A DNA stretch of 64,000 nt, taken from Dactylorhiza incarnata. Its lineage: Eukaryota > Streptophyta > Magnoliopsida > Asparagales > Orchidaceae. Below, in pieces: positions 2 through 61,686 of this stretch. The DNA is taken from contig JAWHQI010000099.1 in the NCBI GenBank assembly GCA_033032865.1, positions 2,241,001 through 2,305,000 on the forward strand. Direction: 5' to 3'. Every line of letters begins with the position of its first letter. Positions within the stretch are counted from its first letter, which is position 1. Below the pieces are notes generated by a model. It saw only the letters and a program-made list of their open reading frames with translations. It was not told where the DNA came from and did not search any database. A program made the position numbers and the translations under genes.

Positions 2-334
2 TCGGCCTTGGCAGCTCAGGAAGCCATCTGGCTTAGGAGGTTGGTGGGAGACGTCCACAAGGAGGTTCGGGAGCCGACTCTGCTACGCGGTGACAACGAG
101 AGTGCTCTCAAACTGGTTACCAATCCAGTTTATCACGCGAGGACCAAGCATATCGAGATCGAGCATCACTTCATACGGGAGAAGGTGCTGGAGGGATCTC
201 TTTCGGTTGAGCATGTGCGGAGTGCGGACAACGTGGCGGACATCTTCACAAAGGCGTTGGCAAAGGGGCCGTTCACATGGCTAAGGAGCCTACTGGGGCT
301 AGTTTCAACTTCCCACTTTAAGGGAGAGTGTTGA
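2..334 (+). pseudogene. X polyprotein, C-terminal RNase H fragment (5' cut by window)
   Basis: An open frame enters from the window edge and ends at 334. It shows the final part of copia RNase H: the DNESA motif holding a catalytic aspartate, the HARTKHIEIEHHFIRE block, and the closing ADIFTKAL motif. In copia elements this domain removes the RNA template during reverse transcription. No stop or frameshift is visible here. The stop codon overlaps the first bases of the 3' LTR, so the reading frame runs through the purine tract into the LTR. Whether the rest of the polyprotein is intact cannot be judged. Confidence 0.85.
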
Positions 335-369
335 AATTGTTGAAGTGGAAGTTAGAGGACTTTTGGACT

Positions 370-1420
370 TGGGCGGTCTGGGAGGAGGTCGGGCGGTCTG
401 GCGTGACCGCACGACTTGGCAGTCTTCCTCTGCGGTCTGGCTTGTCTTAGCCTAGCTGCGGTCTCCTGGCTTGATCGCTGGTATCTGGGTCCAAGGCGGC
501 TGAAGGTGGAGGCCGCGCGGTCTGTCTCTGACCGCGTGGCGGGTTGTTCGTCTTCAGGTGCGCGCGGTCTGTGCGTGACCGTGTGGCGGGTTGTCTTCCT
601 CAAAGCTGTGGCGGTCTGGTGTGATCGCACAGCTTGTCCCAGGTTTCTCCAGAATGCGGTCAGGTGGTTGTCCAGGCTTTCTGGTGGTGTTCGCGGACTA
701 AGGGTCTTAGTCGCGCGGTCTCAGGTTGCGGTCTCAGGAGGAGACTGGTATACAAGCTGGACGTTGTTCGCGGTCTCAGGTGGAGACCGGCATGCGGACA
801 GGAGTTCGCGGTCTGTTGGCGAACTGGCTGTGTTCGCGGTCTCGGGCGAACACAGGGGGTGAACAGCTTCGGGCAGTCTGGCGATCTCTCTTGGAGTCGC
901 GATCTGCTGTGAGAGTGGCGGTCTCTCATAGTTGATGTTGAAGCTGGCGAGTTCACCAAAATGAAGCAGGAGTACTATTGCTGATCGCGCGGTGTGACCG
1001 GTCAGGTCGCGCGGTCTTGAGGGTGGTGATCCTATCTCATAGGGTGGTGACTGGATCAGGTCTCACGCCTATAAATAGGACCCATCAGCAGCAATAAAAA
1101 AGACACACCAAGTGTAAGCCGAGTTCTCTTCTTTCCTGCGGTCTCTATTTGTCTGACCGGGTGGTCTGCTGATTGAACTCCTCTTGTGCTGCTTCTGCGG
1201 ATAGTGTGGGCAGCAGCGATCACCTCTTCCTCTGAAAGTGTTCGGGCGGTCTGCGGCTTGGAGTTGTGGTGCTGGAGTTCGGGAGAATCAGGAGTTCGGA
1301 AGAAGGAGTGCGGTTTGGTGGTGTTCTGTGATCGGCAGGTCGTTGCGGTTTGGCAGCTTGCTCAAGTCACAGGGTGGTCGCGCGGTCTGAAGTCACAGGG
1401 TGGTCGCGCGGTCTGAGCGG
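370..1420. repeat. GCGGTCT/GACCGC motif cluster in X LTR
   Basis: GCGGTCT occurs many times across about 1 kb, often with its complement GACCGC a few bases away, so that many units can pair as short inverted repeats (for example GCGGTC-6 nt-GACCGC near 392-409). Spacing is irregular, so it is a motif cluster and not a simple tandem repeat. A role in LTR regulation or silencing is inference. Confidence 0.75.
1070..1078 (+). promoter_or_regulatory. TATA box of X LTR
   Basis: TATAAATAG lies in the LTR just downstream of the GCGGTCT cluster and about 550 bp before the LTR end, the usual place for the pol II core promoter of an LTR. Confidence 0.65.
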
Positions 1421-1626
1421 TCTTAAGCTATCTTCAGCTTTGTAATTTTCTCTTTGGAGTTTGTGCTGGCGAAATCATGTCTCGCCAAGCAAGCCTTGCC
1501 TTGTAATTGAAGTACTGCTATCAATAAAGATTTCTTGTTTGCCTCTATTTGCTTCTGGTTGTTTGGCTTGTGAACTCTTAGTTGACTAACTCCTGCTCGC
1601 TTCATAAAGATTCGAAAAATTTCACA

Positions 1627-2281
1627 ATTTCACTACAAGATACAAATAAAGAAGTGAAGTAAATAACAAGCAAACTCTCTCTTGAGATTTCTGGAGATGA
1701 GGATGAAGGATTGCTGAAGCACGAGCGAGGTTGAAGCGATCGTTCTTCGGATGCAGCGTGATGGCTTCCTTCTCCAGACTTTCTTCTTTGGCTTTGAGTG
1801 GGAGATGATGTTCGGCAGAGTAGCAGCACGAGAGTTTGGGCACAAGTAATGTCTCTGGAAGTTCTAACCCAAAACGAGAGAGAACACATTGTTTTATAAA
1901 TCTTGGAGCTAGAGCCTGCGGTAGCTGATAGCGCCCGCGGTAGCGTTCGTGTGGAGCGGTTACAAAACCATCAGCGGTGTGGTCCTGTGCACGATCTTGA
2001 GCTAGCGCCTGCGGTATCGCTAGCGATAGCGGTAGCGTTAAGGAACCGCTGAGACGGAACCGCTGAGACAAAACTGCTGAGATGATCTTGAGCTAGCGCC
2101 TGGCGTTAGCGCTAGCGCTGACGGTAGCACTCCATTCAGAAAGTTTGATTCCATGCTGCCTTATACCTGTGGAGTATTGCACCTATAGTTCTTGCACACT
2201 ATAAACACATTACACACAATATCAAATACAATATGGGATTTGTTATTCTCAAACAAAGGGATGTGACACACATGTCCAACA
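1627..2281 (-). repeat. Sire1 3' LTR, partial
   Basis: Matches 9646-10320 of the 5' LTR in the same orientation, with scattered substitutions and small indels in the GCTAGCG-rich part. The missing segment (equivalent to 9170-9645) should lie left of the window, beyond X. Minus-strand TATAAAAC is at 1891-1898. The 12-bp perfect palindrome AGCGCTAGCGCT is at 2108-2119, and two copies of GAACCGCTGAGAC lie at about 2043-2072. Confidence 0.9.
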
Positions 2282-2555: not shown

Positions 2556-4106
2556 AAAGAAGGTGGGGTGAGGGTAGTAAGGAGGCATTTTAAAAAGATA
2601 AAGCATGATCGAGCTTTTGTAATATAGACAAAGATAAAGAATTTAAGTATAGTATTGAAGAGATTTCAAATAAATAGATAAGAGTTTTAGCATAGCGGAA
2701 GATTATAAGAAACATCTTTTTGTAAGCATGAAAAGCATAAGTAAAAATATGAGTTTTACTTCAAAATTGAAAGATGTTTTAACCTTTTGAAATCTCAAAG
2801 TTTTTCATAAAGATACCAAGCATGAAATAAACATATCAAAGAGAGATTATACTACAATGTTTCTTAATTGTAAATTCAAGAAATACCAAAACATTGTAGA
2901 GATCATGCTAGGTTATCTAGTGCATTTCTTATATAAAGAGTAGTATAAATAAAGCATTAGAATCCAATACTCATGAGAAGAAGTGTTATGAAAGATAATG
3001 ATGTGCACAAAAGTGTATTTTGGGCAATGTTAACAATGGATTTAAATCATCAAAATACAAGACAAATGTAAAGTAAAGTGCACAATGAAACACAAGTAAA
3101 TTACTTTCACACACTCTTAATGCACATAATTTTTAACAAAGTGGTGTAATTACCAAAGTTTGCACAAGACACTTTACTATTCTTTCCAAGGTGCTCAACC
3201 TCACAATGCTTACGAAGACTTATCAGGAGGTTCAAGTAGTGCTTGGTGGAGTTATATTTGTCTACATATATAATTTATTTGTTCATATTTGTGAGACAAC
3301 ATTCTCCGAATACACTTGTTTTGCAAACCCAATTTTTAACTTAACCACTTTTCTAAATTTCATAAGTGCAATTCAAATGTAGTGTAGGCAATAAACTTAT
3401 GCAAGTTTTAATTCATTGTACAAATACAATACTCAAGCAAGCATTTTTAGATTTAGACACACATGTTGATTACCAAAATAAGTGAGTGAAATGTATCATT
3501 ATCAATCAAAAAACATTTACTCATACTTAGAGGCATGCTAAGCTTGGTTCTACACATTTTTCAATACAATTGATGCACTTTAAATAGATATATCAAAGCA
3601 TGATAAGCAAAATAATGTTCATAGTAATTTGAAAGAATATGTTTTAACATTGTAAATAATTCTAAATAATAGAATTCATACATGCTTGATATTGGCAATA
3701 AAGATCATACAGTTTTTTTGTTTTGAATTTTTTTTTAATAAAAACAGAAAAATCACACAAACATATTTTTGTATTTTTGAATTTTGAATTTTTGTAGTTG
3801 ATTTTTCATAATTCAAATAAAACAAAAATAAAATAGACAGAAACACAAAAAATAAATTTGCACAAATAAACTAACATATTTTTGTTGATTTTTAGAAATT
3901 TTAAGAAACAGAAAAATCACACACCCACGCTAGCGCCGACGCTAGTGATAGCGCGGCAAACAGTACACGATTTTGTAGGAATTTTAAATTTTTGATTTTT
4001 GATAATGATTAGGGGTCTTAAGTGTAGTCTTATGCAGAAATTGTATAATATTCAGAGATGTTTTGATTGCTCAAATTGCATAAAACATTAGCGTTTTACA
4101 TGTTAT
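2556..4106 (-). other. Non-coding 3' region of Sire1
   Basis: About 1.55 kb of AT-rich sequence between the end of RNase H and the purine tracts, with no reading frame that I can support. It is homologous over most of its length to 61700-63840 in Sire2, so it is a conserved part of the element family. At 3925-3955 it holds a short GCTAGCGCC/GCTAGTGATAGCGC cluster like the one in the LTR. Confidence 0.7.
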
Positions 4107-9169: not shown

Positions 9170-10320
9170 TGTTGGATCTTAAAGCGCCCTTAGAGGGAGG
9201 TGAATAAGGGAATAAAATTCTTTTTATAATTTTTAAGATAATTACTAAGTTGTTTTTGATTAATAGGAAATAAGATGACAATTTAGTAATAACAATTTTG
9301 CAATAATGAAATTTTACGCCAATTGAGAGAAATCAAATAAACACAAATATAATCATGATTGCATTATATAAAAAAAGGTGTTTACAAAATTTGATTTCAA
9401 TATCGCTAGAAATCAGAGGCGTACAAAAGTGAATTTCTTTTCCTTTTCTATACCGACTTGTATCCCCATAAACCGGTTGTCTTTAGCCTATCCTTCCCCG
9501 GATAAAGCCTCAAGCTGCTCTAGCCAACCCAAACTCGGATATGGCCTCGAGCACCCCCTAGATCTAATCCCCAAGACCTAGTCGCCAACTCTTGCGGCGA
9601 ATTCCCCCTAAGCCGCGCAAGGACCTAGTCGCCAAAAACAAGGCGATTTCACTACAAGATACAAATAAAGAAGTGAAGTAAATAACAAGCAAACTCCCTC
9701 TTGAGATTTCTGGAGATGAGGATGAAGGATTGCTGAAGCACGAGCGAGGTTGAAGCGATCGTTCTTCGGATGCAGCGTGATGGCTTCCTTCTCCAAACTT
9801 TCTTCTTTGGCTTTGAGTGGGAGATGATGTTTCGGCAGAGTAGCAGCACGAGAGTTTGGGCATAAGTAATGTATCTGGAAGTTCTAACCCAAAATGAGAG
9901 AGAACACATCGTTTTATAAATCTTGGAGCTAGCGTCTGCGGTAGCTGATAGCGTCTGAGGTAGCTGATAGAGCCTACGGTAGCGTTCGTGTGGAGCAGTT
10001 GCAAAACCGTCTGCGGCGTGGTGCTGTGCACGATCTTGAGCTAGCGCCTGCGGTATCGCTAGCGCTAGCGGTAGCGTTAAGGAACCGCTGAGACGGAATC
10101 GCTGAGACAAAACCGCTGAGATGATCTTGAGCTAGCGCCTGGCGTTAGCGCTAGCGCTGGAGGTAGCGCTCCATTCAGAAAGTTTGATTCCATGTTGCCT
10201 TCTACCTGTGGAGTATTGCACATATAGTTCCTGCACACTATAAACACACTACAAGCAATATCAAATACAATATGGGTTTTGTTATTCTCAAACAAAGGGA
10301 TGTGACACACATGTCAAACA
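9170..10320 (-). repeat. Sire1 5' LTR (1151 bp)
   Basis: Runs on the minus strand from TGTTTGACATG (10320) to AGATCCAACA (9170). Minus-strand TATAAAAC is at 9911-9918. Upstream of it are clusters of GCTAGCG motifs, including the perfect 12-bp palindrome at 10147-10158, and GAACCGCTGAGAC-like repeats at about 10081-10122. The end section has the TTCACCTCCCTCTAAGGGCG block (minus strand) seen in related LTRs of this window. Confidence 0.9.
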
Positions 10321-11275: not shown

Positions 11276-12628
11276 GTAGTCCACTCTTCTACGTCCCTGG
11301 TAAGATTGCACTAACTGTGCATGAGTCTTTTGACAAGGAGACTCTAAGAACCACTGAGTCTTTTGATAAGGAGACTCTTAGAACCTCTGAGTCTTTTTAT
11401 AAGGAGACTCTTAGAACCACTGAGTCTTTTGATAAGGAGACTCTTAAAACAACTGAATCCTTTAAAATAGGGATTCTTAAAACTCTTTTATAGTAGGTGA
11501 ATGAAGAAGAAGAAAATTAGAAGAGAATAGAACACTGCTTTCAGAATTCTTCAGAAGCTGTTTCTTGAATGTTGTAGCTTCTGTTTATCACAAGATCTAA
11601 ATATGATGAACCCTTACTTACAATTGTGATGATTGCAAGGGTTATGAGCTTGATCCTGATTCTCTGCCCTTTTGTTTTCTTGATGCTATGTAATGAGGAA
11701 GATGAAGCAGTTGTGTTCTTATTTTCCTGTGTAGATAAATCTTCTTGTATATTATATTAGAGTTGAAGAGGGAAGGAAGAAGAAGAAGAACTATTTCGAT
11801 AGCCAGAATAATAATCAATTCCTTGTCTTTTTCTTCTCCCCTCAGCATACTTATTCTCTTTCATTTGCATTTGAATTTCTTTCTACTTCTAGGGTGTCCT
11901 TAGAAGGAATGTCCATTGGACAATTGATGTTGCCTTCTATCTTTGTTCCCGACCCATCCATCTGTTTTGAATAAACTTCCAAGAATGACTTTGCTGCATT
12001 ACTGGAATACTCCATTCCATTCTTGGCAATAAACAAGTAGGTGCAGAATAGTCTTCAGCTTTGTAGACCTTCTGAAAAGGTATTAGAAAGGACAACAGAG
12101 AAACTTTAATTTATGTCTGTATTCGAAGCTGCGTCAATTTCATCATTCGTCAGATTGATGCACCTCTGAGTTCTTATCGAAGTTGCTTTGAATTCCTTCT
12201 TAGCTCTGGCTGAACTAAGATGTCGACGTTGAGTAGAGTCATTATCGACGTATTCGTCGAGTTGAAGACTTGGAATTGAACTTTATCTTCTGCGTCGAGT
12301 TGAATTCGAAGTTGTGTCGACTTCTAAGATGGCTTCGACAGGTACTTCCTTCTGCGTCGAGTTCCTTACGACGTTGTGTCGACTTGATTTGATACTTTGA
12401 TAGACAAATTGAATTGCTTCGACTTTTAGTCAGAGTTGCGTCGACTTTAAGTCGAAGTTGCGTTGACTTTAAGTCGAAGTTGCGTCGACTTCCATTCGAC
12501 GCAAGTCTTAACTTAACTGATTTTTTGATTATCTTGACTTGGCCTTGACACTCTAAGGTGAGTGTGACATCCTAGGACATCTAATGACCATTTACCCTTT
12601 CTATAAATCACAAGGGTTTTTCCCAACA
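11276..12628 (-). mobile_element. LTR B, 5' part (minus strand)
   Basis: Same family as D but inverted: from TGTTGGGAAAAACCC at 12628 it reads through the TCGACGCA cluster (12150-12510) and the GAGTCTTTTGATAAGG units (11320-11460) to the point where LTR A interrupts it. Its other end is therefore outside the window. It abuts E just after the E ORF3 stop; CATTA (12629-12633) is the expected target duplication. It is not the E 3' LTR, because the E 5' LTR has a different sequence. Confidence 0.75.
12150..12510. repeat. TCGACGCA/TGCGTCGA cluster in LTR B
   Basis: Many copies of TGCGTCGACTT, GTCGACG and GTCGAAGTTGCG with irregular spacing, built on the palindrome GTCGAC. The equivalent cluster in LTR D is at about 13872-14240, on the other strand. 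Confidence 0.75.
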
Positions 12629-13691: not shown

Positions 13692-15265
13692 TGTTAGGAA
13701 AACCCCCTTTTGGTTTAACTTAACAAATTATGTATAGGTGATTTTACTTCCTAGGAGTATTACCCTCATTGTATAGTAAGGGTAAATTGGTCATTAGATG
13801 TCTTAGGATGTCACACTCACCTTAGAGTGTCAAGGCCAAGTCAAGACAATCACAAAATAAGTTAAGTTAAGACTTGCGTCGAATGAAAGTCGACGCAACT
13901 TTGGCTTGATGTTGATGCAACTCGGACTAGACGTCTAAGCAACTTATTCAGCCTGTCGAAGTATAAGTCAAGTCGACGCAATGTCAAAAGGAACTCGACG
14001 CAGAAGGTAGAGCTTGTCGAAGACATCCAAGAAGTCGACGCAACTTTGACTATAATTCAACGCAGAAGTCAAAGCTCAATTCCAAGTTTTCAACTCGACA
14101 GATACGTCGATAAGGAATCGACGTAACGTCAATATCTGAGTTCAGCCAGAGTTAAGAATTAATTCAAAGCTACTCTTATGTGAACTCAGAGGTGCATCGA
14201 TTTGAAGAATGATGAAGTCGACGCAGCATCGATACAGTCAGAAAAGGAAGCTTTTTCTGGTTTCCTTATCTGACCTTTTCAAAAGGACCAAAAGGCTAGA
14301 GACAGTTCTCCAACGGCTCGTTTATTGCCATGAATGGAATGGAGCTTTCTAGAACACAGCAAAATCATTCTTGGAAGATATTCAAAATTGATGGACTGGT
14401 CGGGAACAAAAGAGGAAAGGATAATTATGTGTCCAAAAGAATTCCTTATCAGGAACAACCCAATAAAAGAAAGGATTTGAAATCCCAATCATACAGAATA
14501 AGTATAATGTAGGGGAGAATAGGGTGTTCATCTTGTCTGTGGAATAGGGTGTTCATCTTCCTCCTCCTCAAACCCTAAGACAAGAATAAGTCTTCTTTCA
14601 ACATAATGAAAAGATACCAGCTGCTTCTTTTTCTTCATCTTACAGCATTTGTTTACAAGGAGTACTTACAGAAAAGGATCAATTCAAATAACCCTTGCAA
14701 TCATCACAATCATAAACAAGGGTTCATCATTTCAGATCCTGTGAAAGACAGAAGCTGCGGAAGTGCTTCTAAAGAATTCTGAAAGACAGAATTCTATTTT
14801 CTTCTTCCTCCTTTCTTCTCACTCTTCCTTCAATTGTAAAGAGTTTTATTAATCCCTCTTCCAAAGGAATCAGTGGTTCTAAGAGTCTCCATATCAAAAA
14901 ATTCAGTGGTTCTAAGAGTCTCCTTATCAAAAGACTCAGTGGTTCTAAGAGTCTCCTTATCAAAAGACTCAGCCACAGGTTGTGCAATCCTACCAGGGAG
15001 GTAGAAGAGAGGAGTACCCACATTTTGGGGAACCTCTATAAAATTCATGTGTCTTTGTGTGTGATTTTATGTGCTGTCCATACTTTAGTTTTTCTGTGTT
15101 TTATATTTCCAACAATATGTTTATACTTTATTCTGTCTTTGGTATTGCTGGTTGCATAATCACTTAGTGTTTTTATTGTGTGTGCATAAATAGGATAGAA
15201 AATATTTAAAACTCTATTCACCCCCACCCCCTAGAGAATACTCAGAGGCACACAGTGCACTTTCA
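13692..15265 (+). mobile_element. Solo LTR D with perfect TSD
   Basis: A 1574-bp LTR running from TGTTAGGAAAACC to GTGCACTTTCA, flanked on both sides by AGTTA (13687-13691 and 15266-15270). No internal sequence is present, so it is a solo LTR left by recombination between two LTRs. It splits E ORF3; removing it and one AGTTA gives a readable junction. It has the TCGACGCA cluster (about 13872-14240), and three AGTCTCC(T/A)TATCAAAA units at 14880-14970. Confidence 0.92.
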
Positions 15266-16381: not shown

Positions 16382-16873
16382 TCTTTGATAAGAATGATTC
16401 GCTGAGATGGGGGGGGGGGGGAGGAAGGGTATCTTGACAGCTGAGTAGGGTTTTGGGTGTGTAAGTGATTTAATCAACATTGCTCTATTTATAGGGGTAC
16501 TATTTAAGTTTTCCTTAGAGAGAGATGTTATTTTGACTTAGTATTTAGTTGATTTAATTAACCTATCCCGTCTTAGAGGATCCACTGAGATGGAGAACTA
16601 AACCGCTGGGACAAGGTAATATTAACCGTTGAGACGACTTAGCTGTCTCAGCGGTTCAGTTGAGACTTTCTCAGCTAAACACACTACCTAGCAGTGAACC
16701 CTTTTAAATTGGATTGATTGTCTCCCTAATCATGTCACTAAGTGTTTCTAAGTATCAACATATCCTAGCAAAGCTTAAGATACAAAATAACAGGATGATA
16801 AACAATATGAAATGTTGATGACTATTTAATATTCAACATTCCTAGCTCAATTTTGAATAAATAAAACTTATCC
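16382..16873 (-). other. E spacer between pol and ORF3, with LTR-type palindromes
   Basis: A non-coding interval with a run of 13 G (16409-16421) and, at 16567-16675, GATCCACTGAGATGG, AACCGCTGGGAC, CCGTTGAGACG, GTCTCAGCGGTTC and related motifs. The same motifs occur in the E 5' LTR (29985-30180), so an LTR-type cis cluster sits just ahead of ORF3. It could act as an internal promoter or binding region; that is inference. Confidence 0.55.
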
Positions 16874-21266: not shown

Positions 21267-21267
21267 A

Positions 21268-21285
21268 TTTGGTATCAAAGCGAGG
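21268..21285 (+). other. G primer binding site
   Basis: TTTGGTATCAAAGCGAGG begins two bases after the 5' LTR; TGGTATCA-AAGC fits initiator tRNA-Met with one change from TGGTATCAGAGC. Confidence 0.75.
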
Positions 21286-21689: not shown

Positions 21690-21910
21690 TGTTAAATTCA
21701 AAATTTTGAAATTCACAATTCAAATTCAAAATTCAAAATTTTGAAATTCAAATTCAAAATTCAAATTTTTGAAATTCAAAATTCAAATTTTTGAAATGCA
21801 AAATTCAAATTTTTTGAATTTCAAATTCAAATTTTTTATATTCAAAATTCAAATTTTTGAAAATCAAATATTTCTGGAAATTCAAAATTTGAATTTTGAA
21901 TTTTTTTTTC
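21690..21910. repeat. AT-rich (AATTCAAATTTTTGAA)-type repeats in G leader
   Basis: Degenerate units of TTCAAATTTTTGAAATTC, self-complementary, so the leader could fold into many small hairpins. No coding potential is visible. It lies between the primer site and the gag fragment. Confidence 0.7.
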
Positions 21911-47036: not shown

Positions 47037-47224
47037 TGTTATACATCCATAAAGGCCTTCGAGTGCGTCTAGAGAAAACTCCACTAAAGGGAGGTAGGGT
47101 CAACGGTCAACGCATGATCGCCCAAGTTGAAGAAACCGAACCCGCCATTTTCGCCGCCAACTGCCAGTGCGAGAACACGCACGAAACGCACGGAGCACGC
47201 CGCCATAGCCGAACCCCACAACTG

Positions 47225-47640
47225 GGGTGCGACTAGCCCGCACCCCACTAGTGGGGTGCGAATAACCGCACCCCCATAGTGGGGGGGTACGGCCAAACTG
47301 CACCCCTTGTGGGGTGCGGCCAAGCCGCACCCCTTGGGGTGCGGCCCAGCCGCACCCCTGCGGGGTGCGGCCAAGCCAAGCTGCACCCCCTTGGGTGCGG
47401 CCCGGCCACACCCCCTTGGGTGCGGCCAAGCCAAGCCACACACCCTTGGGTGCGGCCCGGATGCACCCCCTTGGGGTGCGGCCAAGCCAAGTCACACCCC
47501 CTTGGGTGCGGCCCGGACGCACCCCCTTGGGTGCAGCCCGGACGCACCCCCTTGGGGTGCGGCCAAGCCAAGCCACACCCCCCTCGGGTACGGCCGCACC
47601 GCGCCCCCCTTAGGTTGTGGCCGAGCCACTCTCCCCCGTA
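47225..47640. repeat. GCACCCC/GGGGTGC hairpin array in H 5' LTR
   Basis: About fifteen units such as GCACCCCTTGGGGTGCGGCC with the spacer AAGCCAAGCC. The halves GCACCCC and GGGGTGC pair, so each unit is a small hairpin. The 3' LTR has the same array at 52258-52625 with a slightly different copy number. Confidence 0.85.
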
Positions 47641-47714
47641 ATGGAGTTGGGGCAAATCCCCCCTCTTCTGACTCGCCGCTTACTCTTCGGGTTCTGGATT
47701 CTGCCTAGAACGCC

Positions 47715-48195
47715 TCCTAGCACATTCAGAACGCAATCGTGTTCATTGCGCACTCAGAGCTCCCACGCTCGTTGCGCGCTCAGAACGCCTCTCCATTCGC
47801 TCAGAACGCCTCTCCATTTGCTCAGAATTCTCTCGTGTTCATTGCACGCTCAGAGCGCTCCCACGCTTGTTGCGCGCTCAGAACGCCTCTTCGTTCACTC
47901 AGAACGCCCTCGTGTTCGTTGCGCGCTCAGAGCTCCCACGCTCGTTGCGCGCTCAGAATGCCTCTTCGTTCGCTCAGAATGCCCTCGTATTCATTGCGCA
48001 CTCAGAGCGCTCCCGCGCTCATTGCGCGCTCAGAACGCCTCACAGCGCGACCAGGACGCTTCCATGTTCGTTGCGGGCTCAGAATGCTTCCGCGCTCATG
48101 CGCGCTAGGAATGCTTCTGAGCGTTCTTAGAACGCGCCTAGTCGCTCAGATGGCTTCTCCGTTCGTTGCGCGCTCAAAACGCTTCTGAACACGCT
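47715..48195. repeat. GCGCGCTCAGAACGC array in H 5' LTR
   Basis: Repeated CGTTGCGCGCTCAGAACGCCTC and CATTCGCTCAGAACGC units with GCTCCCACGCTCGTT spacers. The 3' LTR array is at 52715-53170, and the inverted H2 copy at about 59560-59890. Confidence 0.85.
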
Positions 48196-48455
48196 CAGCG
48201 CACTTTCACATTTTGTCTTTCTAACATGCTCATATTTTGTCTTTCTAGTTTCTCAGATTGCAGGAACGGCTTGTCGCTTTTTTCGCCTTCAACAAAGCTG
48301 CCCGAACTACCCGAACTGCCCGAACTGCCCAGGGGCGAGACGGTCATTTATGAAAAATGGCGATCCGTGTGCTCCGAACCGGAAAACGTGATTCATCCGC
48401 CAGGTGGTTACGGTGGTTACAATGGTGAAATTACCGGGCTACCCCCGGCCAAAGC

Positions 48456-48463
48456 TATAAAAG
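48456..48463 (+). promoter_or_regulatory. TATA box of H 5' LTR
   Basis: TATAAAAG after the two arrays, conserved in the 3' LTR at 53442-53449 and, inverted, in H2 at 59284-59291. Confidence 0.75.
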
Positions 48464-48967
48464 GAGCCCAGAACCTTCATTTGAGAGGACCTTGCTTTCT
48501 GCACCCGGGAGAACTCCTTGAAGATTTTCACGGAATTCTCCTTTGGCGCTTGAAGATCTCCTTCGTGGACTTGAAGATTTCCCTCATCCCGAAAGGCGAC
48601 TCAGCAATCCCACTTTCGTTCCCCGGAGCATTCTCACTTTTGTTCCCACAGTTCTCAGAAGGAAAAAAGACTTAGTTTTCCGTGAGGTGGCCTGTCACCC
48701 CCGGAACTCCAACTCTCTCTATTATTGTAACGAGCGGCGGCCTATCGCGCTCAAATTCTAAGTACCTAACTGTAAGCTCTGAGAAGATAGTGAAGTTTGG
48801 TCGGCACAGCTCCGTCTACGTGATTTTTTACCCTTTACGGGTTTTCCACGTTAAAAAATCTGTGTACTCAACTAATCTTTAATTGACTGTTTGCGCGCTC
48901 GGTTCGCTTTCGTGCTAAGGTGGTTCATTTCGACCGGTCTAGCAGAGCACCCGAGCGACCCGCAACA

Positions 48968-48990
48968 GTTTGGCTCCATCTGTGGGGATC
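48968..48990 (+). other. H primer-site region
   Basis: TTTGGCTCCATCTGTGGGG starts just after the LTR. It resembles the TTTGGCGCCGTCTGTGGGGA leader common to several plant gypsy elements, with two CG positions changed. Confidence 0.6.
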
Positions 48991-49287
48991 GAATTCCCAA
49001 ATGCTGAGCAAAGGATTTCTGAACGCAGCGCCCGCTTCGCCTGAGTTCACGAAACCAGCAAGAGTGGACACCTCCCCCGAACTATCCGACGCATGAAGTT
49101 CCTCAATCCCTGAAGGCCCGGCGAAAAGAGCGCTCATCGCAGCACCCATCCAGCCCCAGCGGATTGGATCAACTAGCAAGTCGGCCCCTCTCATAGCGGG
49201 GCAGGATCTGAACGATGTCACGCACCAACAAAGGCGACCCCCACCCTGTCAAAGTCAATTTTGGCATACCCAGTTCCGTCGTGGCTA

Positions 49288-50139
49288 AAGCTCCAACACT
49301 TCAAGGAGTTCCACAGAGCAGAGGACCCATACGGGCACGTTAATCACTTCTTAACAACGGTGCGGACGTTCAGACTTCCCGACCAAATCATCTGCAAAAT
49401 CTTCACCAAGACACTGTGCGAAGACGCCCTCTGCTAGTATCAATCCCTGCCAAACGGTGCGATTCACAAATTCACTGAGTTGTCCCAACTGTTCGTTGAA
49501 TGGCACGAAGCGCGCGCACTGAGGATCCAAGAAGAAGAGCGAGAAGGGCCCGAGACGGACGAGTCGCCCCACCCAGGGGAAGCGGAGCGGAGCAAGCAGC
49601 AAGAAAAGATCTGCGCAAGCTTCCGCCGGGAGCATGCCCATGGATGGTTGGACTTCGCCTTAGATGCAGGCATAGGCAATCCAGCCTGTGAACTAAGGAG
49701 GGTGTTGATAACCCATCGCATCTCATTTAATATCCTATTCGTGGCAGCCGTGGTGCGTCTCAAACTCCTAAGCGGGAACCTCAAGCTCAGGGCCACCGAC
49801 GCAGAGCTCCCAGACGGAACTTTGGTACCCACCATAGGAGTCGTCACCCTCCCCGTCCAAGTAGGGATGCACTCAGAACCAGTCCAGTACGATGTTCAGT
49901 TCGTCATCGCAGAGGCAGACTCCCCCTACGATGCAATATTTGGGAGCCTCCTACCTGACGCCCTAGACCATGACGTTTCCATGTTTGGGCACATGGACAA
50001 CAAAGGGAGAATCCTCAGGGATGCAATTCGTGGCTTCAACACGGCCGCTGTCGGGCTCCCTTGGATCAACTACGACCCATCGCCAAACCAAATTCTGAGA
50101 AGCAAGCCGTGCGAGAGTGTCGCGCAACCCCCACATTAA
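49288..50139 (+). pseudogene. H gag core fused to protease-like region
   Basis: One frame from about 49288 to 50139 with an in-frame TAG at 49435-49437 (position of a conserved Trp in ALCWYQSLP). The first part is gypsy gag (FHRAEDPYGHVNHFL, FRLPDQIICKIFT, SLPNGAIHKFTEL). From about 49700 it resembles a retropepsin-like domain (LPDGTLVPTIGVVTLPVQVG, FVIAEADSPYDAIFG), but the usual active-site DxG is missing. No zinc motif lies between them, so part of gag is skipped or moved. Confidence 0.65.
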
Positions 50140-50191
50140 CAGAAAAAGCTGATCTTCCGGCACCGGCAAACCAACTGCAACTTGGGGATAC

Positions 50192-50572
50192 ATGTCACAA
50201 GAGAAAGGGACAGCAACATCAACTCGAGAAGGCCGTACCGCCCCTTCAGAACCAAGCAGACCGTTCCCGAGGACTAGCAAATCAAAGCTCCCGGATCTAC
50301 ACCCCGTTAAATGCCCCCAGCGAGCATATACTGTCCCTAATCTACAACAACAAATCATCAACTGGCCCAGACCGCTCCCCCAGCGTAGGGGAGATCAATC
50401 CCCGTTCTGCAATTTCCACAAAGGCCGAGGACACCGCACGGAGCACTGTGCCAGATTGAAAGAAGAAATTGAACACCTTGTCCAGTTAGGACACCTTAAG
50501 GCTTTCCGCAAAGAAGCAAAGAAGGATGCCACCGAGGGTCGGTCGCTGGGTCACCGCCGCCCACCATGCTGA
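50192..50572 (+). pseudogene. H gag C-terminal zinc motif region, displaced
   Basis: 126 codons in another frame; near the end CNFHKGRGHRTEHCARLKEEIEHL, with C-2-H-4-H-4-C spacing, is the C-terminal gag motif of Tat-like gypsy elements. In a normal element this precedes the protease. Here it follows the protease-like part, which suggests an internal rearrangement. Confidence 0.6.
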
Positions 50573-50747
50573 GCGACCGAAAGAGCTCGAGCAAGCACAG
50601 CGCAAAGGGAGCTTGATGTAACCTTCTCTCTCATTAAACTTGTATCAGAAACATTTGGCTCAGAAGCCGCAAGATTATACTTGCGCATGTATCAATGTTC
50701 ATTTTCTAATTATGTTTTACCTATCCTAAACTATTCTACTGCAGGAA

Positions 50748-51319
50748 CCCATTTGGGGCCCTGCCCCGGGGACTTTGCACCGCCGTCGATTGAAGGTTCG
50801 CCCTTCTCTTCCGCCGTCAAGTCCTGACGTCGTAGGGGCCTGCCCCCCTTATGTTCGCCCCCCGGTTTGAATACACCAGCTATTCACCGGCCACTTTGGG
50901 CCCCTCCCCCGGGGACTTTGCACCGTCGTCGATTGAAGGTTCGCCTTACTCTTCCGCCGTCGAGTCCCGGCGTCGTAGGGGCCTGCCCCCCTTACATTTG
51001 CCCTCGGTTTGAATACACCAGCTATTCATCGGCCACTTTGAGGCCCTGCCCCGGGGACTTTGCACCGCCGTCGATTAAAGGTTCGCCCTTCTCCTCCGCC
51101 GTCGAGTGCCGGTGTCGTAGGGGCTTGCCCCCCTTGCGTTCTCCCTCGGTTTGAATACACCAGCTATTCACCGGCCACTTTGGGGCCCTGCCCCGGGGAC
51201 TTTGCACCGCCGTCGATTGAAGGTTCGCCCTTCTCCTCCGCCGTCGAGTCTCGGCGTTGTAAGGGCCTGCCCCCCTTACGTTCATCCTCAGTTTGAATAC
51301 ACCCGCTATTCACCGGCCA
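50748..51319. repeat. 142-bp tandem array in H
   Basis: Period 142 bp (GAATACACC at 50869, 51011, 51153, 51295), about four copies, each with GGGGCCCTGCCCCGGGGACTTTGCACCG and CCGCCGTCGA. The period is not a multiple of three. It occupies the place where pol would be. Confidence 0.92.
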
Positions 51320-51330
51320 AATCTATATTA

Positions 51331-51722
51331 TAAAAGCCGCGAGCACAGACTCGCGCAAACTAATTTTCTATTACGTGAAAGCCGCGAGCACAGACTCGCG
51401 CAAACTAATTTTCTATTATGTAAAAGCCACGAGCACAGACTGGCGCAAACTAATTTTCTATTATGTAAAAGCCGCGAGCAAAGACTCGCGCAAACTAATT
51501 TTCTATTACGTAAAAGCAGCGAGCACAGACTCGCGCAAACTAATTTTCTATCATGTAAAAGCCACGAGCTCAGACTCGCGCAAACTAATTTTTTATTATG
51601 TAAAAGCTGTGAGCTCAGACTCGCGCAAACTGGTTTTTCTATTATGTAAAAACTGCGAGCTCAGACTCGCACAAACTAATTTTTCTATTATGTAAAAAGC
51701 CGCGAGCTCAAACTCGCGCAGG
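51331..51722. repeat. 45-bp tandem array in H
   Basis: Period 45 bp (51336, 51381, 51426, 51471 and on), about 8.7 copies of AAAGCCGCGAGC-CAGACTCGCGCAAAC-TAATTTTCTATTATG. GCGAG and CTCGC pair as a small hairpin in each unit. The period is a multiple of three, which explains the long repeated frames; I do not regard them as genes. Confidence 0.95.
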
Positions 51723-52079
51723 CTCATCCGGTATTTTGTAAAAGGCCATCAAGCTGTACAGGTATCAACGCTAAATAGCAAGCCAGCAACAATCCCAAAG
51801 TACGAACATCCTCCGCCGGCCATCTTGAAGCACCTTTCCTCAATCGACACTTTGACAACAACCAGGGCAGCAGGGCCACGAGAGTGCTATTGCAACGCAG
51901 CGCAGAGCGAGAAATGCCTAAACAGAACAAGAAAGCAAAAGCAACCACACACTCATCCTTCGACAGCAATTTCTACCCAAGGCACCACGAAGAGAGCAAT
52001 GATCGAAGCTGCCACAGAAAAATCGAAACCTCCGAACTCCTCCGCGCCGAAATTCAGACTCCGAAGGTTTGGGGGCTTA
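51723..52079 (+). other. H 3' internal region and purine tract
   Basis: No supported gene. It ends with GGTTTGGGGGCTTA directly before the 3' LTR, the probable polypurine tract. Confidence 0.55.
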
Positions 52080-53954
52080 TGTTATACATCTATAAAGGCC
52101 TTGGAGTGCGTCTAGAGAAAACTCCACTAAAGGGAGGTGGGGTCAACGGTCAACGCATGATCGCCCAAGTTGAAGGAACCGAACCCGCCATTTCCGCCGC
52201 CAACCGCCAGTGCGAGAACACGCACGAAACGCACGGAGCATGCCGCCATAGCCGAACCCCACTACTGGGGTGCGACTAGCCAGCACCCCACTAGTGGAGT
52301 GCGAATCGCCGCACCCCCCATAGTGGGGGGTACGTCCAAACCGCACCCCCCATAGTGGGGGGTACGTCCAAACCGCACCCCTTGTGGGGTGCGGCCAAGC
52401 CGCACCCCATGTGGGTTGCGGCCACGCCGCACCCCATGCGGGGTGCGGCCAAGCCAAGCCGCACCCCCTTGGGTGCGTCCCGGACGCACCCCCTTGGGGT
52501 GCGGCCAAGCCAAGTCGCACCCCCTTGGGTGCGGCTCGGACGCACCCCCTTGGGGTGCGGCCAAGCCAAGCCGCACCCCCCTAGGGTGCGGTCGCACCGC
52601 GCCCCCCTTAGGGTGAGGCCGAGCCACTCTCCCCCGTAATGGAGTTGGGGCAAATCCCCCCTCTTCTGACTCGCCGCCCGCTCTTCGGGTTTCGGATTCT
52701 GCCTAGAATGCCTCCTAGCACACTCAGAACGCTCTCGTATTCATTGCACGTTCAGAGCTCCCGCGCTCGTTGCGCGCTCAGAACGCCTCTCCATTCGCTC
52801 AGAACGCTCTCGTGTTCATTGCACGCTGAGAGCGCTCCCGCACTCGTTGCGCGCTCAGAACGCCTCTCCATTCACTAAGAACGCTCTCGTGTTCGTTACG
52901 GGCTCAGAGCTCCCACGCTCGTTGCGCGCTCAGAATGCCTCTCTGTTCGCTCAGAATGCTCTCATATTCATTGCGCGCTCAGAGCGCTCCCACGCTCGTT
53001 GCGTGCTCAGAATGCCTCACAGCGCGACCAGGACGCTTCCATGTTCGTTGTGCGCTCAGAACGCTTCCGCGCTCATGCGCGCTCGGAATGCTTCTGAGCA
53101 TTCTCAGAACGCGCCCAGTCGCTCAGATGGCTTCTACATTCGTTGCGCGCTCAGAACGCTTCTGAGCGCGCTCAGAGCACTTTCACATTCTGTCTTTCTG
53201 ACATGCTCACATTTCGTCTTTCTAGTTTCTCAGATTACAGGAATGGCTTGTCGCCTTTTTCGCCTTCAACAAAGCTGCCCGAACTGCCCGAACTTCCTGA
53301 ACTGCCCGAACTGCCCAGGGGCGAGACAGTCATTTATGAAAAATGGCGATCCGTGTGCTCCGAACCGGAAAACGTGATTCATCCGCCAGGTGGTTACGGT
53401 GGTTATAATGGCGAAATTACCGGGCTACCCCCGACCAAAGCTATAAAAGGAGCCCAGAACCTTCATTTGAGAGGACCTTGCTTTCTGCACCCGAGAGAGC
53501 CCCTTGAAGATTTTCACGGAATTCTCCTTCGGCGCTTGAAGATCTCCTTCGTGGACTTGAAGATTTCCCTCATCCCGAAAGGCGACTCAGCATTCTCACT
53601 TTCGTTCCCCAGAGCATTCTCACTTTTGTTCCCCACAGTTCTCAGAAGGAAAAAAGACTTAGTTTTCCGTGAGGTGGCCTGTCACCCCCGGAACTCCCTC
53701 TCTCTATTATTGTAACGAGCGGTGGCCTGTCGCACTCGACTTCTAAGTACCTAACTGTAAGCTCTGAGAAGATAGTGAAGTTTGGTCGGCACAGCTTCGG
53801 CCACGTGATTTTTTACCCTTTCCGGGTTTTACACGTTAAAAAATTTCTGTGTACTCAACTAATCTTTAATTAACTGTTTGCGCGCTCGGTTCACTTCCGA
53901 TCTAAGGTGGTTCAATTCGTCCGGTCTACCAGAGCACCCGAGCGACCCGCAACA
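52080..53954 (+). repeat. H 3' LTR (1875 bp)
   Basis: Same layout as the 5' LTR, with substitutions and repeat-number changes in the two arrays; about 56 bp shorter. Ends CCCGCAACA followed by CTAAT. Confidence 0.92.
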
Positions 53955-58390: not shown

Positions 58391-58732
58391 AAAAATAGTA
58401 ATTATTTTTATTAGATAATTACAAAAAATAGTTTATCATCACAAACACAATTCATTAATGTATCGTCATTACCTAGTAATCTGAATAACGATGGTTGATG
58501 AACATATTTGAAATAAAATATAAAGTCAAGAAACCAATTTAAAACAAATGAAAATTAAAGAACCTATTTGAAACTATGCCCAAAGTCAAGAGAACAATTT
58601 GAAGCAAATGAAAATTAAAGTATATATTTGAAACCAGGCCAAAACTTAATGGACCTATTTGAAGCAAATGCAAAGTAAAGGACCTATTTGAAACTTGACC
58701 CAAAATTAAGGGACTACTTTGAATATTTTCCC
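58391..58732 (-). repeat. Foldback element right arm, outer part
   Basis: Complement of 46525-46875, including the tandem TTTGAAACC/AAATTAAGGGAC units and the ATTATCTAATAAAA block. Confidence 0.85.
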
Positions 58733-58829
58733 ATCTTATTAATATAAACAAGTGAAGTGTACATACTATTTTTTAGTGTGATTTATCATTTAAAATTTAT
58801 TATGAATTACATGAAATTATTTTTATATA

Positions 58830-60605
58830 TGTTGCGGGTCGCTCGACGCTCTGGTAGACCAGTCGAATCGAACCACCTTAGCTCGAGAGTGAGCCGAGCG
58901 TGCAAATAGTCAATGAGAGAATTAGTAAATGACAAGAAGGTGTTTTTATCGTGGAAAACCCAAAAAGGGTAAAAAAAACACGCGGCTGGAGTTGTGCCAG
59001 CATAATTCCACTGTGTCGGTTTGTTACAAGTGAAAGTTGAGAATTCGAGGGCGACCGGCCGTCGCTCAGTAGTAGTAGAGAGAATCTCTGAGGGTGACAG
59101 GTCACCTCTCGAAAAGATAAGTACTTTTTATCGGGAATGAAAGTGAGATGCTCTAGTCGGCTTTCGGTGCCCAGAGGATTCCCAAATCGCTTAGGAAGAA
59201 TGCCTTCTAAAATGAAGGAGATCTTCAATGGAGCTCTCTCGGGCATAGAAAGCAAGGTGTCTTAAAATGAAGATTCCATGCTCCTTTTATAGCCGTGGCA
59301 GTGGTAGCCCGGTAATTTTGTCGTGGTAACCACCGTAACCACCTGGCGGGCGAATCACATTCACCGATTTGGAGCACACAGTTTGACATTTTTTTATATT
59401 CCCGTCTTGCCCCCCCCCCCCCCCCCCCCCGGGCAGGTTGGTCAGTTTAGGCAGTTCGGGCAGCTTTGTTGATAGCGTTGAGCGCAGTGAACAAGACGTG
59501 CAATCTATGAAATTAAGAAAGGTTAACTGTCGCGCGTGTCGGGAATATGGAAGACATTCTGAGCGCGTGTTGAACACAGAAGGCATTCTAAGGGAGCGGA
59601 GAACACGGAAGTCTTCTGAGCGCGCGATGAACGCGAAAGCATTCTGGGCGCGCGATGAACGCTGAAGTATTCTAGGCGCGCGATGAAAGCGGAAGCTTTC
59701 TGGGAGCCCGGTGAACGCGGAAGCACTCTGAGGGCGCGATGAGCACCGAGGCATTATGAGCGTGCTGTGAGCGCGGAGGCATTCTGAGCGCACAGTTAGC
59801 TGGGAGGCATTCTAAGCGTGCAGTGAGCGCGAAGGTGTTCTGAGCGTGCGGTGAGAGCAGAGGAGGTTTTTAGTGCAGGGTGAGCATGGATGCATTCTGA
59901 GTGCGCCGTGAATGGAGAACCAAGAAGTTACTCGAGCAACGCTGACGAGGCCTGACCATAAGAGGAAGAGTGTGCCTCTCAGGGGACGGGGGGCAGCTTT
60001 TGGCCGCACCCGCTAAAACCAGAGGTCGCACCCCTTAAGGGGGGTGCGGTTTGCCGCACCAAAGGGGAATGCGACCCCACGACACCCCAAGGGGGATGAG
60101 GAATGGGCCGCACCCTAGGGGCGCTGCCTTTGTCGCACCCTTAAGGGGAGCACACCCCCTTTTGGGATTGCGGCCTTGGCCTCACTCCTTATGTGAGGGT
60201 GCGGCCCTGGCTGCACCACATATATGGGGGTGCTGCCTTGCTCGCAGCCCCTATGGGGGGGGTGCGGCCTTGCTCCCACCCCCCATGGGGGGTGTGTCCT
60301 TAACCGCACCCCAAATAGGGGGTGCATCCTTGGCCGCACCCCATCAAGGGAGATGTGGCCTAGGTCGCACCATGGAGGGTTTGGTTGCATCGTGGTGGTG
60401 CGGCCCGACTGATGTGGCAGTCATCACATGGTGGTTTTGCTACCATTACTAGATGGTGGTTTTGCGTCAATCTCTCTGTGCAAGGATGGGCCTGTTGGAA
60501 TTGTATCGGTGAGCCGGTTGAGGTTGCTGCGGAAAATCTCATGTTTGGGCGAGCCCATTATGGTGAACTATATCAATTGCCCCCTAATTTTTTGGAGGTC
60601 GCTTT
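58830..60605 (-). mobile_element. LTR H2 (H family, inverted), cut by Sire2
   Basis: Begins TGTTGCGGGTCGCTCG on the plus strand, which is the complement of the H LTR end CGACCCGCAACA. It carries both H-type arrays (59560-59890 and 60000-60380), a minus-strand TATAAAAG at 59284-59291 and a run of 21 C (59410-59430). Its LTR start is missing because Sire2 enters at 60606. It is a solo LTR or the 3' LTR of a minus-strand H element. It is clearly diverged from H. Confidence 0.8.
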
Positions 60606-61686
60606 TGTTGGATCTATAGGCGCCCTTAGAGGGGGTGAATAAGTGTTTTAAAACTTTTAATATATCTTGATATACTTGAGATAATAAGTGATTAAAATAG
60701 AGAGAAATCAAGTAAAACAATTGAAATCAATTAGATACGTGATTTTATTAATAAGAAATTAAGGATTAGAAAACTTGATTTCTTATAACGCTAGAAATCG
60801 AAGGCGGATAATAAAATGACTTTTTCATTTTCTATCCTGACTCGCATCCCCACGAATTGGTGGCTTTAGCCTATCCTTCCCCGGATATGGCCTCAAGCCG
60901 CTCTAGCCAATCCTCCCTCAGATACGGCCTCGAGCACCCCATAGATCTACACCCTATACCTAGTCGCCAACACGAGGAAAATTCCTCCCTAAGTCCTACC
61001 CAGACCTAGTCGCCAACACGAGGCAAATTCTCTAAATGATTACAAGAATAATGATGTGAAATAACCAACAATAATATCAAAACTCCATCTTGAAGAACTT
61101 CTGAAGTTGGAGATGAAAGACCGTTGTAGAATAAGCATTGTTAAAGTGATCATCGTTTGGATCTGGCGTGAAGAAATCCTCCTTTAGAAACTCATGAAAC
61201 TTTGGGTGGGAGATCAACTCTCGGCAGTATAAGGCACTGGAAATTTGGCACTAAAACTCTCTCAAGGATGTGTGTTCAAAACGAGAGAAGATGGGTCCTT
61301 TTTATAGCCTTGGAGCTAGCGCATGCGCTAGCGCTACCGTCGGCGCTATCCTTATTTAGGCAATATTCTGCTTGTGCGTATCTTCATTCCAAGGAAACCT
61401 TTCTAAAAATCCCACGGTACCACCAGCACTATCAGCTACCGCCTAGCGTTATCGCCTTCTATACTTGCCTCCTGAACTTGCCTAATCAGAGCTAGCGCCC
61501 GCGCTAGGTGCTACCGCCGGTGCTAGTGGACATGTTAGAATTCTGGCTTCAAATTTGGGGGCAACCTTCTTATGTTATACTTGAGTTATATGAACTTGTT
61601 TCCTGCACACTTAAACAAATGAGATCAAATACACATATGATTTGTTATTCTCAAACCTAGGAGATGCGGAAGACCATGTTATAACA
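60606..61686 (-). repeat. Sire2 3' LTR (1081 bp)
   Basis: Minus strand from TGTTATAACATGG (61686) to AGATCCAACA (60606). Minus-strand TATAAAAAG is at 61298-61306. GCTAGCGC/GCGCTAGCGC motifs lie at 61313-61345, 61430-61460 and 61490-61530. Confidence 0.88.

What the first reader, a model, noticed from the sequence alone, without database searches (positions are those of the whole stretch)
329..61686. Every young LTR family here carries its own cluster of short CG-rich palindromes
X: GCGGTC/GACCGC; Sire1 and Sire2: GCGCTAGCGC; E: CCGCTGAG/CTCAGCGG; B and D: TGCGTCGA on GTCGAC; C: GTTCGACGAAC; H and H2: GCACCCC/GGGGTGC and GCGCGCTCAGAACGC. In X, Sire1/Sire2, E and H the cluster lies upstream of the TATA box; for B, D and C no clear TATA box was placed. 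The element families are otherwise unrelated in sequence (copia and gypsy). Conserved palindromes in Sirevirus LTRs are known; the same design with a different core in each family of one locus suggests convergent selection, such as binding of family-specific factors, or anti-silencing or methylation-sensitive sites.
Basis: partly seen in the sequence, partly recalled or inferred. Interest (0 to 1): 0.75.

Follow-up and report, generated by a model that had tools for sequence, protein, structure and literature searches.

The report
Family-specific promoter repeat arrays in retrotransposons
Most of the short CG-rich repeat clusters seen in these plant jumping genes are a known promoter feature of one genus (Sireviruses), with three less expected points: similar arrays in two other kinds of element, one motif shared by three families, and a second set of the repeats plus a TATA box in front of an internal envelope-like gene.

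Summary
The clusters are real, but the title overstates them. All 13 LTR copies examined have excess repeated 7-mers. Perfect CG palindromes exceed shuffles only in the two Sire1 LTRs; several motifs are direct repeats (X GCGGTC 20:2, C TCGACGA 12:0). H and H2 are one element's two LTRs. Gypsy family G (TSD TATCT, LTRs 93.75% identical) alone shows no CpG, CG-palindrome or fold excess.

Sire1, Sire2, E, C, D and probably B are one genus, Sirevirus, whose family-specific, CpG-island-forming palindromic repeats before TATA were described in 2010 (PMC2829016). Most of the "convergence" is thus a known shared trait. Words persist while array positions drift; after insertion, array CpGs decay no slower than other LTR CpGs.

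Less expected: X, a non-Sirevirus copia, and H, probably gypsy, carry such arrays, though that paper calls the motif Sirevirus-specific; GTCTCAGCGG is shared by Sire1, E and C; E's linker holds six hits of E's own LTR motif (one exact), then CTATAAATAG and, 113 bases on, an ATG of an envelope-like frame. This is a candidate for the internal env promoter that paper could not identify, seen in one of three linkers.

The parts
329..1626 (+). X: 3' LTR of a non-Sirevirus copia element, inserted in the Sire1 3' LTR; stop of the RNase H frame 2-331 lies inside the LTR. Start inferred from one LTR only (searches used 330)
   Evidence: Sequence and frame; RNase H 50% identical to a Nicotiana protein given the name tnt 1-94, 35% to Sire1, 37% to E
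372..1028 (+). X array of GCGGTC (20 sense, 2 antisense over the LTR; 5 of the 22 lie downstream of TATA)
   Evidence: CpG odds ratio 2.2; DNA fold z -6.2 on its first 400 nt
1069..1078 (+). X TATA box CTATAAATAG
1627..2281 (-). Sire1 3' LTR, cut by X
9170..10320 (-). Sire1 5' LTR, PBS at 9157
9931..10211 (-). Sire1 array (AGCTAGCGC, GCGGTAGC, three GTCTCAGCGG-type units); last motif 6 bases before TATA
3925..3960 (-). Sire1 linker copies of the GCTAGCG motif just after pol; first CTATAAA after them is about 1.6 kb on, at 2341
60604..61686 (-). Sire2 3' LTR with array 61312-61577; last motif 6 bases before TATA
63834..63862 (-). Sire2 linker copies of the same motif; no CTATAAA after them in the linker, one TATAAA about 200 bases on in AT-rich sequence
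11286..12628 (-). B: LTR kin to D, 3' part missing; array 12109-12519
   Evidence: CpG odds ratio 25.5
13692..15265 (+). D: solo LTR, TSD AGTTA (13687-13691 and 15266-15270), inside what I take for E's envelope-like region; array 13841-14291
   Evidence: sequence; CpG odds ratio 16.9
24757..26364 (+). C: LTR (ends within a few bases) with array 24776-25226 (TTCGACGAA, CTCAGCGG, TCGACGA, one orientation)
   Evidence: CpG odds ratio 11.3
29043..30326 (-). E: 5' LTR (ends within a few bases), PBS 29032, TATA 29865-29874
29982..30169 (-). E array: 10 GTCTCAGCGG hits with up to 2 mismatches, both orientations, ending 107 bases before TATA
   Evidence: DNA fold z -5.7 for 29987-30197
16570..16666 (-). 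E linker: 6 hits of E's LTR motif after pol (1 exact, 2 with one mismatch, 3 with two)
   Evidence: 7 hits in the stretch 15271-16840, shuffle mean 0.56, maximum 4 in 200 shuffles
16485..16494 (-). Candidate internal TATA box CTATAAATAG, 75 bases after the linker repeats
   Evidence: 3 such 10-mers in the window against 0.23 expected (X promoter, this one, and 56961 in the hAT region with no known role)
15678..16381 (-). Envelope-like frame pieces (16178-16381 and 15678-16223); ATG 16381 is 113 bases after the TATA start, another in-frame ATG at 16480 is only 14 bases after it. A further frame 12673-13647 lies beyond solo LTR D
   Evidence: no Pfam family above cut-off, no homologue for the two longer pieces; identity rests on position
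19978..24696 (+). G: gypsy element, LTRs about 19978-21266 and 23387-24696, TSD TATCT; CG-containing direct repeats before TATA 20382; no CpG, CG-palindrome or fold excess
47037..53954 (+).
58831..60500 (-). H3: diverged relative of the H LTR with the same vocabulary; outer end approximate

Best explanation
The clusters are U3 cis-regulatory repeat arrays. In Sire1, Sire2, E, C, D and probably B they are the repeated motifs already known from Sireviruses: short family-specific words, partly symmetric, repeated in U3 and forming a local CpG-rich stretch, before the TATA box where one can be placed. I infer that they bind host DNA-binding proteins that activate the promoter, and that the array turns over by slippage while the word is kept in active source copies. 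In element E the same word is used twice: in the LTR, and with a TATA box in front of the envelope-like frame, where it may drive a separate env transcript. Shown: position, repetition, CpG concentration in the copia LTRs, retained vocabulary with drifting positions, the linker motif cluster with its TATA. Inferred: protein binding, activation, selection in source copies, env transcription.
For: Repetition above shuffles in 13 of 13 LTR copies. CpG odds ratio array against rest: B 25.5, D 16.9, C 11.3, E 5.7, Sire1 3.1, Sire2 2.5, X 2.2. Vocabulary kept between diverged relatives: Sire1 to Sire2 12 hits against 0.6 in shuffles, H to H3 43 against 1.3, although array identity is below the rest (0.465 against 0.706; 0.571 against 0.694). 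B to D, 34 against 0.8, says less because those arrays are 79% identical. The last motif ends 6 bases before TATA in both Sire1 LTRs and in Sire2, two independent insertions. Sirevirus signals. Known Sirevirus motifs: PMC2829016. E linker module.
Against: No TATA box could be placed for B, C or D. B/D lack the CGG-CCG signature. In B against D the array is more alike than the rest (0.794 against 0.744), unlike the other comparisons. Arrays also diverge faster than the rest inside the three LTR pairs, after insertion (Sire1 0.932/0.967, G 0.943/0.959, H 0.906/0.953), so fast change alone needs no selection. In E the densest window of repeated words, chosen without regard to composition, is not the array and holds no CpG; E's odds ratio rests on 5 CpGs against 4. 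Array bounds were set by hand. Control segments also show some repeat and hairpin excess. The internal TATA is seen in 1 of 3 linkers, and only 1 of its 6 motif hits is exact. No expression or binding data.
Confidence: 0.64

Rival explanations
1. The arrays are targets of host silencing: hairpin-forming repeats give small RNAs, and rapid turnover reflects escape from them.
For: DNA-fold excess in X (z -6.2), E (-5.7), B (-3.9), D (-3.2), H (-9.3, -12.7), H3 (-6.4), against -1.6 to 1.3 for the downstream LTR parts. Fast array divergence. PMC5311732 (passages) says the palindrome region of maize Sirevirus LTRs is a small-RNA hotspot that evolves rapidly.
Against: No fold excess in Sire1 (-0.8), Sire2 (-0.6), C (0.4) or G (-0.7). 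Does not explain the word shared by LTR and linker of E, or the equal distance to TATA in Sire1 and Sire2. Not exclusive of the best explanation.
Confidence: 0.35
2. Anti-silencing sites in the manner of VANC targets: an element-encoded or host protein binds the array and removes methylation.
For: VANC target motifs also form tandem repeats that differ between related elements (PMC5735166, passages).
Against: Array CpGs decay after insertion as fast as other LTR CpGs when pooled (40 of 156 against 29 of 122, p=0.78); the single pairs differ (Sire1 0.23/0.20, G 0.17/0.33, H 0.29/0.17). No VANC-like gene was looked for. The VANC motifs in the passages hold no CG.
Confidence: 0.12
3. Neutral slippage arrays: tandem duplication in U3 with no function; CpG richness is a by-product of the seed word.
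For: Many units are directional direct repeats. G shows direct repeats without CpG, CG-palindrome or fold excess. Arrays diverge faster than the rest in two of three comparisons between relatives and in all three LTR pairs.
Against: Vocabulary kept between Sire1 and Sire2 and between H and H3 far above shuffles; placement before TATA in X (17 of 22), Sire1, Sire2, E, H and H3; the E linker cluster with a TATA box.
Confidence: 0.22

Closest known systems
Sirevirus repeated motifs (RM), Bousios et al. 2010, PMC2829016 (section 9 whole, other passages read)
   Same: Short symmetric repeated words, different in each element, clustered in U3 before TATA, forming CpG islands; extra copies in the linker 5' of ENV
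   Different: In E a TATA box follows the linker motifs (that paper could not conclusively identify an env promoter); B/D lack the CGG-CCG signature; C units are all in one orientation; GTCTCAGCGG is shared by three families; Sire1 has linker copies but no long frame in its linker; X and H are not Sireviruses, and that paper calls the motif Sirevirus-specific
U3 of the Tnt1 superfamily (PMC1838419 and PMC3316501, passages read)
   Same: Copia U3 is the fastest-changing part and defines subfamilies; BII boxes there bind defence-induced factors
   Different: X has some 20 CG-containing half-sites, most of them in about 640 bases before TATA; no such motif was seen in the passages read
VANC target repeats of Arabidopsis VANDAL transposons (PMC5735166, passages read)
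   Same: Short family-specific words in tandem arrays that turn over quickly
   Different: DNA transposons; the motifs shown hold no CG; an element-encoded binding protein is known there, none was sought here

Membership tests
Sirevirus (Sire1, Sire2, E, C, B/D) | PolyC-rich integrase signal near the LTR 3' end | tested here: met
   ATTCACCCC exact in D 15216, C 26313, E 29083-, Sire2 60632- and nowhere else in the window; Sire1 with a change; B lacks this end. That this word is the signal is recalled; the passages read give only its place and C-richness
Sirevirus (Sire1, Sire2, E, C, B/D) | CA/A(T or G)TGG junction with TATCAGAGC primer site | tested here: inconclusive
   Primer site exact in Sire1 (9156), one mismatch in E (29031), two in C (26369); but gypsy G also matches with one mismatch (21271), so it does not discriminate; Sire2 is a 3' LTR, D a solo LTR, B cut
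Sirevirus (Sire1, Sire2, E, C, B/D) | PPT octamer in several copies, AT/TG attachment site | tested here: inconclusive
   AAAGGGGGAG at 2284 and 2535 (Sire1, AT/TG) and 61689 (Sire2, TT/TG), also 12805; octamer recalled; not visible for C and D, not placed for E
Sirevirus (Sire1, Sire2, E, C, B/D) | Symmetric repeated motif with CGG-CCG signature | tested here: inconclusive
   CGG present in Sire1/Sire2 (GCGGTAGC), E and C (CAGCGG); absent from the B/D unit TCGACGCA; symmetry weak in C
Sirevirus (Sire1, Sire2, E, C, B/D) | Motif cluster is CpG-rich relative to the rest of the LTR | tested here: met
   Odds ratios 2.5 to 25.5, p 0.034 to 2.7e-12, hand-set bounds; with density-chosen bounds E fails
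Sirevirus (Sire1, Sire2, E, C, B/D) | TATA box shortly after the cluster | tested here: inconclusive
   Sire1 and Sire2 (6 bases), E (107); not placed in B, C, D
Sirevirus membership of X | Long linker between pol and 3' LTR | tested here: not met
   Stop codon of the RNase H frame lies inside the X LTR; RNase H 50% to P0078, 35% to Sire1, 37% to E, while Sire1 and E are 48% to each other
Tat-type gypsy (H) | Gypsy polymerase phylogeny | not tested
   The one H frame searched (49438-50136) has no Pfam family; the name rests on the recalled look of PBS and PPT

The most novel reading that the evidence does not exclude
Repeat-array promoter modules are a general LTR device, evolved independently in Sirevirus, other copia and gypsy elements of one genome and tuned to family-specific host factors. 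In Sirevirus E the module has been re-used as an internal promoter that expresses the envelope-like gene separately from gag-pol.
Probability: 0.22. Interest if true: 0.65.

Novelty: new variant of a known kind. Interest (0 to 1): 0.4.

Why it matters
How Sireviruses with an envelope-like gene express it is not settled: PMC2829016 favoured an internal promoter but could not conclusively identify one. Element E offers a concrete, testable candidate of about 100 bases of repeats plus a TATA box. If X and H confirm that such arrays exist outside Sireviruses, the motif is not a genus trait but a general way for LTRs to gain and renew enhancers. The shared GTCTCAGCGG word suggests that one host factor may serve several families.

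Tried and rejected
General word sharing among families: no excess. Shared CpG 8-, 9- and 10-mers in U3 were 95, 36 and 18 against 166, 52 and 15 expected from shuffles. Only words in three or more groups stood out: 2 ten-mers against 0.08 expected (3 of 300 shuffles reach it), 6 nine-mers against 1.5 (1 of 300), 31 eight-mers against 20.5 (9 of 300). This is post hoc, and both ten-mers hold the same core GCTGAGAC. With up to two mismatches the word also makes a cluster of three in B outside its array (11351-11417).

Protection of array CpGs from decay: not supported for the pooled Sire1, G and H pairs; B/D was left out of that pool (0.50 in both parts, with only 2 CpG sites counted outside the array).

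E linker module as a plain duplicate of the LTR promoter: only matches of 19-68 bases among the ten best, so shared words rather than a copied block.

Density-chosen bounds give CpG observed/expected in the densest 400 bases against the rest: B 1.71/0.10, D 1.31/0.15, C 1.76/0.33, H 1.41/0.89 and 1.42/0.90, H3 1.41/0.64, X 1.06/0.78, Sire1 0.99/0.63 and 1.11/0.80, Sire2 0.85/0.78, G 1.25/1.33 and 1.22/1.19, E 0.00/0.27. So H does show an excess by this measure and E does not, the reverse.

Outside copies: two scans of viral contigs with pol pieces of E and Sire1 found none. The envelope-like pieces 15681-16223 and 12670-13644 found no homologue at E<=0.001. The TM-like stretch in 12673-13647 is partly a CAT repeat, so it is weak evidence.

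Papers: Bousios et al. 2016 is not held and is known only through PMC5311732 (passages). For non-Sirevirus arrays I used listings (titles and starts of abstracts): 12 of 28 papers listed; 3 papers; 12 of 41 listed; 2 papers; I read passages of PMC3601003 (which notes U3 tandem repeats in retroviruses and Tnt1), PMC1838419 and PMC3316501. For the internal env promoter one search listed 4 papers; I read passages of PMC2829016 and PMC3414828. This is no proof of absence: most subscription papers are missing.

Considered and dropped: the box CTATAAAA near the 3' ends of C and D as their TATA, because E has a related stretch without TATA there (my reading; no alignment run).

Changed on rechecking: best explanation from 0.66 to 0.64, neutral rival from 0.20 to 0.22, novel case from 0.25 to 0.22, because arrays also diverge faster inside LTR pairs and the internal TATA is seen in 1 of 3 linkers, not 1 of 2.

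Full report
What is there. The window is a nest of plant LTR retrotransposons. I mapped LTRs by self-comparison and by reading the sequence; some ends are good to a few bases only. X (329-1626, +) is the 3' LTR of a copia element inserted in the Sire1 3' LTR. Sire1 runs on the minus strand (LTRs 1627-2281, cut, and 9170-10320), as does Sire2 (3' LTR 60604-61686). G (19978-24696) is a gypsy element (Tf2-1-like domain) with TSD TATCT. D (13692-15265) is a solo LTR with TSD AGTTA. B (11286-12628, minus) is its relative, cut at one end. C (24757-26364, +) and E (29043-30326, minus) are further copia LTRs.

Is it more than chance? All 13 LTR copies have more direct repeated 7-mers than any of 200 dinucleotide shuffles. 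Inverted 7-mers exceed at p<=0.03 in 12 of 13, hairpins with 6-base arms at p<=0.04 in 12 of 13. Perfect palindromes containing CG exceed at p<0.05 in only 2 of 13, both Sire1; B, E, H3 and G have none. Of 16 non-LTR control segments (100 shuffles each), 5 reached the minimum p for direct 7-mers, 5 had p<=0.03 for inverted 7-mers, 5 had p<=0.04 for hairpins and 0 were significant for CG palindromes. The arrays are therefore real mainly by the size of the direct-repeat excess (2 to 20 fold; controls under 2 fold except a microsatellite and one more). "Palindrome" is right only in part: X, C and the CTCAGAA units of H are directional, while E and the GCACCCC units of H occur in both orientations.

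CpG. Counting CpG against TpG+CpA, arrays exceed the rest of the LTR in B (odds ratio 25.5), D (16.9), C (11.3), E (5.7, on 5 against 4 CpGs), Sire1 (3.1), Sire2 (2.5) and X (2.2), but not in G (1.0), H (1.1, 1.3) or H3 (1.1) (bounds set by hand). With bounds chosen by repeat density alone, CpG observed/expected is far higher in the dense window of B, D and C, higher in H and H3 (1.41-1.42 against 0.64-0.90), moderately higher in X and Sire1, little different in Sire2, and not raised in G or E, where the densest window lies elsewhere.

G. G is the only family with no sign in all three measures (CG palindromes, CpG, fold). On each single measure some listed family fails too, and G's hairpins reach p=0.04 and 0.01, so it is a counterexample to "CG-rich palindromes in every young family", not to repeats before TATA: it has CG-containing direct repeats there.

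Conservation. Between the related Sire1 and Sire2, array identity is 0.465 against 0.706 elsewhere; between H and H3 0.571 against 0.694; between B and D it is the other way, 0.794 against 0.744. Inside the LTR pairs, thus after insertion, arrays are also the less alike part: Sire1 0.932/0.967, G 0.943/0.959, H 0.906/0.953. Yet the words persist: the top 8-mers of the Sire1, Sire2, H and H3 arrays hit the relative's array 12 to 100 times against 0.5 to 1.4 in shuffles; B and D do so as well, but those arrays are 79% identical. In both Sire1 LTRs and Sire2 the last motif ends 6 bases before TATA. Within the Sire1, G and H pairs, array CpGs decayed in 40 of 156 cases against 29 of 122 elsewhere (p=0.78). 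Inserted copies thus show no protection, and the abundance of array CpGs has to come from the source copies (inference).

Which families? A polyC word that I take for the Sirevirus integrase signal is exact in C, D, E and Sire2, nowhere else in the window, and nearly so in Sire1. Primer sites fit in Sire1, E and C, but also in G, so they do not discriminate. Polypurine tracts fit in Sire1 and Sire2. By these signs Sire1, Sire2, E, C and D are Sireviruses, and B goes with D. The letters of the signal and of the tract are recalled. Bousios et al. 2010 (PMC2829016; passages, section 9 whole) described for 13 Sireviruses a symmetric motif, with few exceptions different in each, repeated in U3 and forming CpG islands in most of them, with TATA on average 37 bases after the island and with extra copies 5' of the envelope-like gene in nine of them. 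GTCTCAGCGG is shared by Sire1, C and E; general word sharing is not above chance.

What is left. First, X is not a Sirevirus: its RNase H frame ends inside the LTR, and its RNase H is 50% identical to a Nicotiana protein given the name tnt 1-94 (a name that may be generic) against 35% to Sire1 and 37% to E. H is probably gypsy by its ends (recalled, not tested). Both carry such arrays, while the 2010 paper calls the motif absent from classic copia elements. Second, E's linker holds six hits of E's own LTR motif at 16570-16666 (1 exact, 2 with one mismatch, 3 with two; 7 hits in 15271-16840 against 0.56 in shuffles, maximum 4). Then comes CTATAAATAG at 16485-16494 (3 in the window, 0.23 expected, the third at 56961 without known role). 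The ATG 16381 of an envelope-like frame lies 113 bases after the TATA start; another in-frame ATG at 16480 is only 14 bases after it, too near to lie in a transcript that starts some 30 bases on. The 2010 authors favoured an internal env promoter but could not conclusively identify one. In the linkers of Sire1 and Sire2 no CTATAAA follows the motif copies within 1.5 kb (Sire2 has one TATAAA about 200 bases on), so this is 1 of 3 linkers. The envelope-like frame has no database relative; its identity rests on position.

Mechanism. I infer promoter-proximal binding sites for host factors, renewed by slippage, with the word kept in active copies. A role as small-RNA target is a serious and compatible rival: fold excess is strong in X, E, B, D, H and H3, absent in Sire1, Sire2, C and G. 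Anti-silencing in the VANC manner (PMC5735166, passages) has no support here beyond the look of the arrays.

Limits. The host genome could not be searched, so every statement about families rests on one to three LTR copies.

Noticed in passing
7430-7484 (minus): Sire1's LTR motif (GCTAGCGC twice, GCGGTAGC once) also occurs inside the gag-pol region, within the frame 7179-7859.
   Followed up: partly
46525-46890 and 58378-58732: Inverted repeats, 79% alike, built of 60-base units, flank a region with hAT transposase pieces (54743-55297 Dimer_Tnp_hAT, 55824-56438 DUF659); H lies inside it. Possibly one large hAT-type transposon.
   Followed up: partly
10709-12628: A plus-strand LTR end of the B/D family (10709-11285) abuts the cut end of minus-strand LTR B, tail to tail, as if by inversion or nested insertion.
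   Followed up: no
50752-51720: Interior of H: four 142-base and 8.6 copies of 45-base tandem repeats; no long polymerase frame was found, so H looks non-autonomous.
   Followed up: no
31661-31864: 9.3 copies of a 22-base CG-rich unit (CGCGCGCACGCAAATGCACTCT) outside any LTR I mapped.
   Followed up: no
63869-63990: GAGCTCGAG-type repeats in the Sire2 linker at the window's end.
   Followed up: no
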